A DNA stretch of 64,000 nt from Sulfobacillus acidophilus (lineage in GTDB: Bacteria > Bacillota > Sulfobacillia > Sulfobacillales > Sulfobacillaceae): the NCBI GenBank assembly GCA_003023745.1, contig PXYV01000004.1, positions 46,213 to 110,212 of the forward strand. The letters are read 5' to 3'. A program made the translations under genes and the position numbers. Of the stretch, positions 40,531 to 43,104 are shown piece by piece. Under the pieces are notes generated by a model. It was not told the origin of the DNA, did not search any database, and worked only from the letters and a program-made list of their open reading frames with translations. Position 1 is the stretch's first letter. The number at the start of each line of letters is the position of its first letter.

Positions 40531-40719
40531 CGACCGCCTGGCACCGAAACGCAGCTTGGTCAATACAGACCCCTTGCCGTCGGGAATGCAATAATTGCAG
40601 CAATGCCGAAACCACCGATCGACCAAGCGCCGCACACGCCCAACCTGCTATGATATGGGCAGGCGGAGTTGAGACGACGTTCTTCCGCAACACCAAAGAA
40701 AGGGTGAAACGGGCAACTA

Positions 40720-40973
40720 CCCCGGCCTGAAGGCCGGAGCTTGAGAAAGCTCCTGAGTTGACCAGCCTTGGCCCTGCGGATGTGGGGCTCCGTTCGGTCG
40801 GTCATGACACCCTTGGATGCTTCTCCAGTCTGAGGCCCTGTCGTCCGTCATTAAAAGCCAGCTAGGGGTAGCGCGCGCGGTGTGGCGGACCCGACAAGCC
40901 GACCGAACATTGGCGAGGAGAGAGAGTTTTCGAATCTGTCACTAGCCCCGTAAGGGGGAGAAAGCAGGAACGC
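40720..40973 (+). ncRNA. Candidate omega-RNA of IscB
   Basis: About 250-nt noncoding, hairpin-rich segment directly upstream of iscB (CCGGCCTGAAGGCCGG; GAGCTTGAGAAAGCTC), ending in '...GAGAGAGTTTT...AGGAACGC' before the ATG, the position and character expected of an IscB omega-RNA. Confidence 0.6.
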
Positions 40974-42287
40974 ATGGTTTTTGTTCTCGACAAGCAGAAG
41001 AAACCTCTAATGCCCTGTTCCGAAAAGCGGGCGCGGCTCCTTCTCGAACGCCGCCGGGCACGGGTCGTCAACATAGTGCCCTTCACGATTCGCTTGGTGG
41101 ATCGCCTTCGAGAAAACTCGGTCTTGCAAGACATGCGCCTCAAGCTCGATCCGGGCTCGAAGACGACGGGCATGGCGATCACGTTGGATGGTATCCACGG
41201 CACGCACGTCGTCTTTCTCGGCGAGATTGTCCACAAGTCGGGGATCCAGGCCCGACTCGAGGCCCGACGAGCGGTACGTCGCGGGCGACGGTTTCGCCAT
41301 ACCCGCTATCGTGCGGCCCGGTTTCAGAATCGGACGCGGAAGGACGGGTGGTTGCCCCCGTCGCTCGCGGCACGCGTGAATCAAACGCTCCGTACCGTGG
41401 ACAAAATTCGCGCTCATGCGCCTATCACCGCCATGAGTGTGGAGCATGTTCGCTTCGACACCCAAAAGCTCGAAAACCCGGAAATCGTGGGCGTGGAGTA
41501 TCAGCAGGGCACCCTCCTAGGCTACGAAGTGCGGGAGTATCTGTTGGAGAAATGGGGCCGCACCTGCGTGTACTGTGGCGCCACCGATGTCCCGTTGCAG
41601 GTGGAACACATCATTCCCAAGCGGCGGGGCGGCAGCAATCGGATGAGCAATCTAACCCTCGCCTGCAAACCCTGCAACCTCCAGAAGGGGAAGCAGACCG
41701 CAGCGGAATTCGGCCATCCGGATGTTCAAGTCCACGCCCGTCAGCCTCTCAAAGATGCAGCGCTCATGAACGCCACGCGGTGGCGATTGTACCACCAACT
41801 GCAAGCGACGAGCCTGCCGGTGGAAGGCGGCTCCGGTGGCCGGACCAAAAAGCAACGGATTGCGCACGACTTGCCCAAAGAACATTACTACGATGCGCTC
41901 TGTGTCGGGAAAAGCACGCCTGCGCAATTCCTGACCCTGCCGGCTTTCGTCCAGATCTGGTCAGCGAAAGGACGCGGCAATCGCCAGCGCTGCCGCACCG
42001 ACAAGCATGGATTTCCGATCCGTCACTTGTCTCGGCAGAAACACCATTTTGGATTTCAGACCGGGGATCTCGTGCAAGCCGTCATCCCTCACGGGAAATA
42101 CGCGGGTACTTGGACCGGGCGGGCGACTGTGAAAGCGAGTGGATCGATCCGCATTGTCACGAGCATTGGCGTTCATCCCACGACCTCGTATCGCTATGGT
42201 CACGTGCTCCAGCGCGGCAATGGCTGGGTCTATACTCAAAAACCTTCCAATCAGGAAAGGGGGAAGGCGGCTTCCTCCCCGGCTTGA
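40974..42287 (+). CDS. iscB: RNA-guided endonuclease IscB (PLMP, split RuvC, Arg-rich bridge helix, HNH)
   Basis: 'KPLMPCSEKRARLLLERRRARVV' (PLMP), 'KLDPGSKTTGMAI' (RuvC I), 'RRAVRRGRRFRHTRYRAARFQNR' (bridge), 'MSVEHVRF' (RuvC II), 'CVYCGATDVPLQVEHIIPKRRGGSNRMSNLTLACKPCNLQKG' (HNH), 'KEHYYDALCVG' (RuvC III). Confidence 0.95.
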   Translation: MVFVLDKQKKPLMPCSEKRARLLLERRRARVVNIVPFTIRLVDRLRENSVLQDMRLKLDPGSKTTGMAITLDGIHGTHVVFLGEIVHKSGIQARLEARRAVRRGRRFRHTRYRAARFQNRTRKDGWLPPSLAARVNQTLRTVDKIRAHAPITAMSVEHVRFDTQKLENPEIVGVEYQQGTLLGYEVREYLLEKWGRTCVYCGATDVPLQVEHIIPKRRGGSNRMSNLTLACKPCNLQKGKQTAAEFGHPDVQVHARQPLKDAALMNATRWRLYHQLQATSLPVEGGSGGRTKKQRIAHDLPKEHYYDALCVGKSTPAQFLTLPAFVQIWSAKGRGNRQRCRTDKHGFPIRHLSRQKHHFGFQTGDLVQAVIPHGKYAGTWTGRATVKASGSIRIVTSIGVHPTTSYRYGHVLQRGNGWVYTQKPSNQERGKAASSPA

Positions 42288-42312
42288 AGGCCGAGGTCTG
42301 CGCCGCCAAATT

Positions 42313-43104
42313 ATGATGACGCAACTGACTGACGGAATACGCCCTGTGCTTCGGTATCATTTTGACGGCGCAAGCTGGCACACCGAGGATGCCGAAGTCG
42401 TTTCCGAAACTCCGGTCACTCTTTTTGTCAACGGAGCCGAATATGTGACAGCTGCCATCACTGCCATCGATCTGCATGACTGGGTTCTGGGCTTTTTAGC
42501 CGGGGATGGCGTCATCGCCAGCGGCGACGCAGTTACCGTCTTTCGATGGATGCCGCAAGAAGGTCAGATTTGGGTCAGGGTTCCGGGCCTTCAACCCCGT
42601 CTGGCAACGTCTCGCTATTTGGGATCGTGTTGCGGACAGAGCCGGCCTGGCTTTTTTAACCCTACCAGTGTGCCTGCTTTGGCGGCCAATCTGACATTGC
42701 AGGTCGACGAACTGAAGGCCGCCTTTGACGCGCTCAGTCGCTGGTCGTCCCATCAGCATTCGGGGGGACTGCATGTGGCAGGTCTGGCACGGCGCGGACA
42801 ACTGCTCGTTGCCCGGGCCGATGTGGGGCGCCACAACGCACTCGATAAGGTGTACGGTGCGGCGCTGACCAAGCCTGACCTGTTGCATGACGCGTACGTT
42901 GTCTTTTCGGGGCGGCTTTCCGCCGAGATTGTCTGGAAAGTGCGCACCATGGGCGTCGAAGCGATTGTTTCCAACGCTGCCCCAACCAGTCTGGGAATCG
43001 AAGTCGGGCGCACCACCGGCGTCACCACGGTTGGGTTTTTGCGCGGCCATGAGCTTAGCGTTTTTACCCATCCCGAACGACTTCTTTTGGATCCACTGGC
43101 CTAA
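42313..43104 (+). CDS. fdhD: Formate dehydrogenase accessory sulfurtransferase FdhD
   Basis: 'HQHSGGLHVAGLARRGQLLVARADVGRHNALDKVYGAAL', 'FSGRLSAEIVWKVRTMGVEAIVSNAAPTSLGIEVGRTTGVTTVGFLRG'. Confidence 0.93.
   Translation: MMTQLTDGIRPVLRYHFDGASWHTEDAEVVSETPVTLFVNGAEYVTAAITAIDLHDWVLGFLAGDGVIASGDAVTVFRWMPQEGQIWVRVPGLQPRLATSRYLGSCCGQSRPGFFNPTSVPALAANLTLQVDELKAAFDALSRWSSHQHSGGLHVAGLARRGQLLVARADVGRHNALDKVYGAALTKPDLLHDAYVVFSGRLSAEIVWKVRTMGVEAIVSNAAPTSLGIEVGRTTGVTTVGFLRGHELSVFTHPERLLLDPLA

What the first reader, a model, noticed from the sequence alone, without database searches (positions are those of the whole stretch)
40720..42295. Intact IscB with candidate omega-RNA wedged directly upstream of fdhD
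Seen: one uninterrupted 437-aa ORF with PLMP, RuvC I/II/III acidic residues, Arg-rich bridge helix and a complete HNH, preceded by about 250 nt of noncoding hairpin-rich DNA and bracketed by CCGGCCTGAAGGCCGG-type hairpins. Known: IscB proteins of the IS200/IS605 superfamily are omega-RNA-guided nickases/nucleases ancestral to Cas9, with the guide at the 5' end of the omega-RNA. Inference: this is a functional, non-autonomous IscB from a probable thermo/acidophile, which could give a stable compact editor. Its guide would come from the flank just left of about 40720 (around 'accaaagaaagggtgaaacgggcaacta').
Basis: partly seen in the sequence, partly recalled or inferred. Interest (0 to 1): 0.8.

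Follow-up and report, generated by a model that had tools for sequence, protein, structure and literature searches.

The report
IscB element docked at fdhD start codon
This is an intact IscB mobile element (a small relative of Cas9 with its guide-RNA gene) that sits exactly between a host gene's ribosome-binding site and its start codon, a habit shared by most of its ATGA-inserting relatives that may explain how its guide gets transcribed without harming the host.

Summary
Window 40974-42287 (+) is a complete 437-aa IscB (NCBIfam guided_IscB 426.7 bits, cut-off 175), preceded by a full-length HEARO/omega-RNA (Rfam RF02033, 126.8 bits, 40712-40928). Relatives with real empty sites fix the element at 40712-42315 (1604 bp), without target duplication.

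The element itself is an ordinary IS200/IS605-type, TnpA-less IscB element. The new part is where it sits: the right flank ATGA (42316) is the start codon of fdhD, and the left flank carries an SD-like sequence. This is a habit. All three intact IscBs in this genome abut a start codon. Of 32 ATGA-junction relatives, 23 open an ORF of at least 100 aa exactly at the junction (22% background; 27% for non-disruptive sites, P=2e-7). In 12 ATGA-junction plasmid copies, 8 NCBI-annotated genes start exactly there. In one subset (8/8 with downstream genes), iscB ends in the target's ATGA. GTGA-junction elements show no such bias (3/22).

Most likely, the host gene's promoter transcribes guide, omega-RNA and iscB. 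That step is inferred. Nuclease activity, TAM and expression were not testable.

The parts
40712..42315 (+). Complete TnpA-less IscB element (1604 bp), from GGCAAC (GTCAAC in relatives) to ...AAATTATG
   Evidence: Ends shared by relatives; exact borders from empty sites of related copies L078/L185 (96% identity), L137/L203 and L076/L204
40712..40928 (+). omega-RNA scaffold (HEARO)
   Evidence: Rfam RF02033, 126.8 bits, full-length match
40692..40711 (+). Inferred natural guide (host DNA, 5' UTR of fdhD; ACCAAAGAAAGGGTGAAACG); contains the SD-like AAAGGGTG at 40699-40706
   Evidence: Left border; SD test over 20 elements; guide 5' end not mapped
40649..40654 (+). Possible -10 hexamer (TATGAT) of the original fdhD promoter
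   Evidence: By eye only. Relatives have a TACAAT at a comparable place before fdhD. The consensus scan found no sigma-70 promoter, so this is weak
40974..42287 (+). iscB, 437 aa
   Evidence: NF040563 426.7 bits; Pfam RRXRR + HNH; PDB IscB chains
42266..42307 (+). Right-end imperfect hairpin (GGCGGC...GCCGCC); the iscB stop lies inside it
   Evidence: Conserved in relatives; no + strand terminator-like site
42316..42319 (+). Target ATGA: inferred TAM and fdhD start codon
   Evidence: Empty-site borders; relatives' fdhD begins MTxL after an SD
42316..43104 (+). fdhD (formate dehydrogenase accessory sulfurtransferase), intact
   Evidence: Pfam FdhD-NarQ 196.7 bits, TIGR00129 163.6 bits

Best explanation
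An IscB/HEARO element of the IS200/IS605 type, mobilised in trans by a Y1 transposase, has inserted without target duplication immediately 5' of ATGA, which is the start codon of fdhD, so it lies between the gene's SD-like sequence and its ATG. Transcription from the host fdhD promoter would run through the flank (guide), the omega-RNA, iscB and on into fdhD. The IscB-omega-RNA complex would recognise the uninterrupted fdhD start (guide match plus ATGA as TAM) and cut it, so that an allele left empty after excision is repaired from a filled copy. Shown: element, borders, guide position, ATGA target, start-codon position, intact downstream gene, no terminator found between. Inferred: mobilisation in trans, expression from the host promoter, TAM use, cleavage, homing, and continued fdhD translation.
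For: HEARO and IscB models far above cut-off. Catalytic residues invariant. Three empty sites of related copies with precise joins. ATGA junctions: 23/32 open an ORF of at least 100 aa versus 22% of all ATGA sites (P 3e-9) and 27% of non-disruptive ATGA sites (P 2e-7). Pfam domains begin at profile position 1-3 within 10 residues of the junction ATG in many of them. Left flanks of these gene cases show an SD peak 4-16 nt before the element (Wilcoxon p 0.0096; none in the others). PGAP annotation puts a CDS start exactly at the junction in 8 of 12 ATGA-junction plasmid elements. In this genome 3/3 intact IscBs abut a gene start: fdhD, an MBL-fold gene, a glycosyltransferase. iscB stop codon supplied by the target ATGA in L106, L114, L117, L121, L125, L133, L138 and C118, all with a gene frame following. 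A solved relative, DtIsrB, uses TAM NTGA (PMC9581776).
Against: GTGA-junction elements are not at gene starts (3/22), so the habit is not universal. No transcript data; the promoter scan found nothing. The SD for fdhD is now 1.6 kb away and the right end has no well-placed SD here, so fdhD may be poorly translated. No exact empty site of this very locus was found; borders rest on sister copies and on fdhD starts in relatives. The SD signal is weak in the plasmid set. I assigned right junctions by eye from the conserved right end.
Confidence: 0.8

Rival explanations
1. The start-codon position is passive: the transposase targets TCAT (= ATGA on the other strand) and insertions inside genes are purged, so start codons are over-represented among survivors; transcription from the host promoter is incidental.
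For: ATGA is a natural part of many starts, and insertion there spares the coding sequence. GTGA-site elements of the same family show no start bias.
Against: Among ATGA sites where insertion would not disrupt a gene only about 27% are start-like, against 72% observed. Three TnpB elements with the same ends are not at gene starts (0/3; tiny sample). iscB frames that end in the target ATGA suggest adaptation to the site.
Confidence: 0.4
2. The transposase prefers single-stranded or transcribed DNA around translation starts, so the bias reflects target access rather than selection.
For: IS200/IS605 transposases act on single-stranded DNA (established knowledge of the family). The bias is strong and seen in unrelated phyla.
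Against: The same-ended TnpB elements would be expected to show it too; 0/3 do. GTGA elements do not show it.
Confidence: 0.2
3. The IscB has been domesticated as a guide-RNA regulator of fdhD.
For: It sits directly upstream, in the same orientation, with a guide from the fdhD 5' UTR.
Against: All RuvC and HNH residues are kept, mobile ends are intact, and the other copies sit at different genes.
Confidence: 0.04
4. It is a dead relic.
For: Degraded copies exist in the genome.
Against: This copy has an intact ORF, a full omega-RNA and both ends.
Confidence: 0.08

Closest known systems
IscB OMEGA nucleases (OgeuIscB, PDB 7xht; TbaIscB, PDB 9k30)
   Same: PLMP, RuvC with bridge helix, HNH; omega-RNA upstream; left-flank guide
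   Different: Only distantly similar to solved IscBs (best sequence hit E 2.2e-41). OgeuIscB reads NNRR and OrufIscB NTAAA as TAM (PMC9640706, PMC13180657), not the ATGA inferred here
HEARO RNA (Rfam RF02033)
   Same: Full-length covariance match; insertion 5' of ATGA/GTGA (that preference is from memory of the original description, which was not held)
   Different: Residence at gene start codons and the borrowed stop codon were not found in the held literature; key papers could not be read
DtIsrB OMEGA nickase
   Same: Related protein and RNA; NTGA TAM (PMC9581776)
   Different: IsrB lacks the HNH domain present here
IS200/IS605 TnpB elements sharing both ends (L155, L156, L179)
   Same: Same left and right ends and TTTTG|ATGA junction, so probably the same TnpA
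   Different: tnpB lies in the opposite orientation between the ends, and these three copies are not at gene starts

Membership tests
IscB | RRXRR/PLMP + RuvC + HNH architecture | tested here: met
   (426.7 bits, cut-off 175)
IscB | RuvC and HNH catalytic residues | tested here: met
   D59, E157, H304, D307; H212, N235 invariant in 8 relatives; roles by analogy with OgeuIscB D61/E193/H340/D343 and H247 (PMC9640706)
IscB | cognate omega-RNA directly upstream | tested here: met
   RF02033 126.8 bits
IscB | RNA-guided DNA cleavage with a TAM | not testable with these tools
   needs biochemistry
IS200/IS605-type element | insertion without target duplication next to a fixed short sequence | tested here: met
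   empty sites of sister copies; ATGA 32/59, GTGA 22/59
IS200/IS605-type element | subterminal hairpins at both ends | tested here: met
IS200/IS605-type element | tnpA (Y1) within the element | tested here: not met
   none inside; 14 Y1_Tnp matches elsewhere in the genome, none with these ends detected. So it is a TnpA-less form that would need a transposase in trans
IsrB | absence of the HNH domain | tested here: not met
   HNH present
Cas9 (type II-D) | reaches the Cas9d/Cas9 model cut-off | tested here: not met
   40 bits vs 375; 26.4 vs 100

The most novel reading that the evidence does not exclude
A whole branch of IscB elements is adapted to live between a host gene's ribosome-binding site and its start codon: the start codon serves as TAM, the host promoter drives the guide (which lies outside the element), the guide spells the host's own translation-initiation region, and in some lineages iscB borrows its stop codon from the target ATGA so that iscB and the host gene are translationally coupled. 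The element thereby becomes a nearly harmless first gene of a host operon.
Probability: 0.45. Interest if true: 0.75.

Novelty: new member of a known kind. Interest (0 to 1): 0.5.

Why it matters
IscB's guide lies outside the element, so its promoter must be in host DNA; how such elements get a guide transcribed wherever they land has no obvious answer from the element itself. Docking between promoter/SD and start codon would answer it and would also explain how the element persists without killing genes. It gives testable predictions (TAM = ATGA, guide = 5' UTR, read-through operon) and a way to read natural guides of this clade straight from genomes. For tool builders it defines the borders, guide and likely TAM of a small IscB from an acidophile lineage.

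Tried and rejected
AlphaFold2 model of the IscB from an 8-sequence alignment: mean pLDDT 42, useless, so no fold search was run. Promoter scan: no hit. RNA folding z-scores not significant. Looking for another genomic target of the natural guide: only itself and one 3-mismatch site without an adjacent ATGA. Looking for a Y1 element with the same ends as autonomous partner: none detected. Empty-site searches in Marinobacter and Allochromatium: not possible with the tool. Original HEARO, ISC, OMEGA and TnpA/IscB papers: not held. Considered and dropped: domesticated regulator, IsrB, Cas9d, relic. In the plasmid set I first took L219 as an in-frame start; rechecking showed it is not, so it is not counted.

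Full report
WHAT IS THERE. The ORF at 40974-42287 (+) encodes 437 aa without interruption. It matches Pfam RRXRR over residues 2-179 (219.7 bits) and HNH, NCBIfam guided_IscB at 426.7 bits against a cut-off of 175, and falls far below the Cas9d and Cas9 cut-offs. PDB relatives are IscB chains (TbaIscB, HfmIscB, OgeuIscB). In an alignment with seven relatives of 68-83% identity the expected RuvC (D59, E157, H304, D307) and HNH (H212, N235) residues never vary; their roles are assigned by analogy with OgeuIscB (PMC9640706). Upstream, 40712-40928 matches the HEARO covariance model end to end at 126.8 bits (gathering 83). Plain folding is not unusual for this composition (z -1.36), so the RNA claim rests on the family model.

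BORDERS. Copies in the same genome (G000:C86, 83%) and in related genomes align from about 40710 to 42319, with left end GTCAAC.ACCCCGGCC and right end ...GCCGCCAAATT.TG followed by ATGA. A search of 34 family genomes with joined flanks of several copies found a true empty site for the L078 copy: L185, 96% identical across the join...GTACT|ATGAAAGC, with no duplication and no loss. Two more divergent empty sites (L203 for L137, L204 for L076) agree. The borders therefore are: element = GTCAAC...TG, target = 5' of ATGA. Applied to the window: element 40712-42315, left flank ending at 40711 (...CACCAAAGAAAGGGTGAAACG), right flank ATGACGCAACTG at 42316. The exact empty site of this locus was not found, but five relatives have fdhD without the element, several of them reading ATGA right after an SD-like sequence (for example AAAGGAGGCACCTCATGACCGACCTG), which places the fdhD start at 42316. 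In this copy the last three element bases are also ATG (42313), so translation could start one codon earlier.

A HABIT, NOT AN ACCIDENT. Eighty relatives from named genomes (Sulfobacillus and other Bacillota MAGs, Marinobacter, Allochromatium, Rhabdochromatium, Nitrospirae, Ktedonobacter and others) gave 59 assignable right junctions: ATGA 32, GTGA 22, others 5. For ATGA junctions, 23 of 32 open a reading frame of at least 100 aa exactly at that ATG, against 22% of ATGA sites in the flanks (P 3e-9) and against 27% when only non-disruptive ATGA sites are allowed, start-like sites being counted generously (P 2e-7). The frames are real gene starts: isopropylmalate dehydrogenase (profile position 1 at residue 4), ThiF (1 at 9), tetrapyrrole methylase (1 at 6), CheB receiver (2 at 5), SDR (2 at 7), Cys/Met PLP enzyme (1 at 8), 2-hydroxyacid dehydrogenase (1 at 5), LytTR-type regulator (1 at 3). 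In the 20 ATG-gene cases with a left flank (window and C86 included), anti-SD pairing peaks 4-16 nt before the element (mean about -4.5 versus about -1.5 kcal/mol in the surroundings; paired test on the -2..-20 region p 0.0096) and not in the other 26 loci. So the element separates the SD from the start codon, and the guide is the ribosome-binding region.

REPLICATIONS. In this same genome the other two intact IscBs also abut gene starts: C86 before a metallo-beta-lactamase-fold gene with GGAGG a few nt left of the element, and C118 (53% identical) before a 369-aa glycosyltransferase. An independent set of 20 IscB elements on annotated plasmids has 12 ATGA junctions; in 8 the NCBI-annotated CDS starts exactly there (L213, L216, L220, L222, L224, L227, L231, L232). 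Two of these lie between parA and parB, directly before the parB start (L227 Deinococcus, L232 Trichormus). Pooling both sets, 30 of 44 ATGA sites open an ORF of at least 100 aa.

STOP CODON FROM THE TARGET. Measured from the iscB stop to the junction, distances fall in lineage classes: -67, -60, -31/-30 (the window's class), and +1, where iscB runs off the end of the element and stops on the TGA of the target ATGA. All eight +1 cases (L106, L114, L117, L121, L125, L133, L138, C118) are followed by a gene frame of 125-950 aa. A four-base stop/start overlap is the classical arrangement of translationally coupled genes (general knowledge); whether coupling occurs here is untested. Three plasmid elements (L213, L220, L222) have a one-base TGATG overlap.

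LIMITS. GTGA-junction elements show no start bias (3/22). A few of them split an SD-like run instead (L086 AAAGGAG|GTGG, L088 AGGAAAG|GTGA), which I did not test. Junctions were assigned by eye from the conserved right end, though three empty sites confirm the rule. The SD signal is weak in the plasmid set. No transcription, TAM, cleavage or translation was measured; the promoter scan was negative.

CAUSE. Three TnpB elements with the same two ends, probably moved by the same transposase, carry tnpB in the opposite orientation and are not at gene starts (frames of 11, 22 and 25 aa). That is what one expects if the bias comes from IscB's need for a host promoter to transcribe its external guide, since TnpB guide RNA is made outward from within the element (established knowledge). 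With three copies this is a hint only. The passive explanation (ATGA targeting plus purging of gene-disrupting insertions) is not excluded, although the non-disruptive null does not suffice by itself.

AGAINST WHAT IS KNOWN. The element is a member of the IscB/HEARO kind. Insertion of HEARO elements before ATGA or GTGA was, as I recall, reported with the original motif; that paper and the main ISC, OMEGA and TnpA/IscB papers were not in the library. DtIsrB's NTGA TAM is documented (PMC9581776) and fits ATGA. I found no held paper describing start-codon residence, SD-containing guides or a borrowed stop codon, but absence from this library is weak evidence. I therefore file the element as a new member of a known kind, and the docking habit as the possibly new point.

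Noticed in passing
L155 (G000:C53), L179 (G000:C47), L156 (G009:C231): TnpB elements of about 1.37 kb share the left and right ends of the IscB element, with tnpB in the opposite orientation; the C47 match is reported with an internal TAG.
   Followed up: partly
L027:1893-2124 (G000:C1:115392-115623): A HEARO-like RNA (65.7 bits, below gathering) with a good left end but no iscB, upstream of a 290-aa membrane-protein-like frame: a standalone omega-RNA or a decayed element.
   Followed up: partly
L086, L088 left/right junctions: Some GTGA-target elements seem to split a Shine-Dalgarno run (AAAGGAG|GTGG, AGGAAAG|GTGA), since the SD consensus AGGAGGTGA itself contains GTGA.
   Followed up: no
L227 (Deinococcus plasmid), L232 (Trichormus plasmid): IscB elements inserted between parA and parB, exactly before the parB start codon, in two unrelated plasmids.
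   Followed up: partly
G000:C52, C65, C43, C77 contig ends: Several contigs of this MAG end inside IscB or HEARO sequence, so the repeat breaks the assembly and the copy number is under-counted.
   Followed up: no
L023 (G000:C70:22500-27000): An element left end is followed some 650 nt later by an IS607-like MerR/serine-recombinase gene; the relation of the two is unclear.
   Followed up: no
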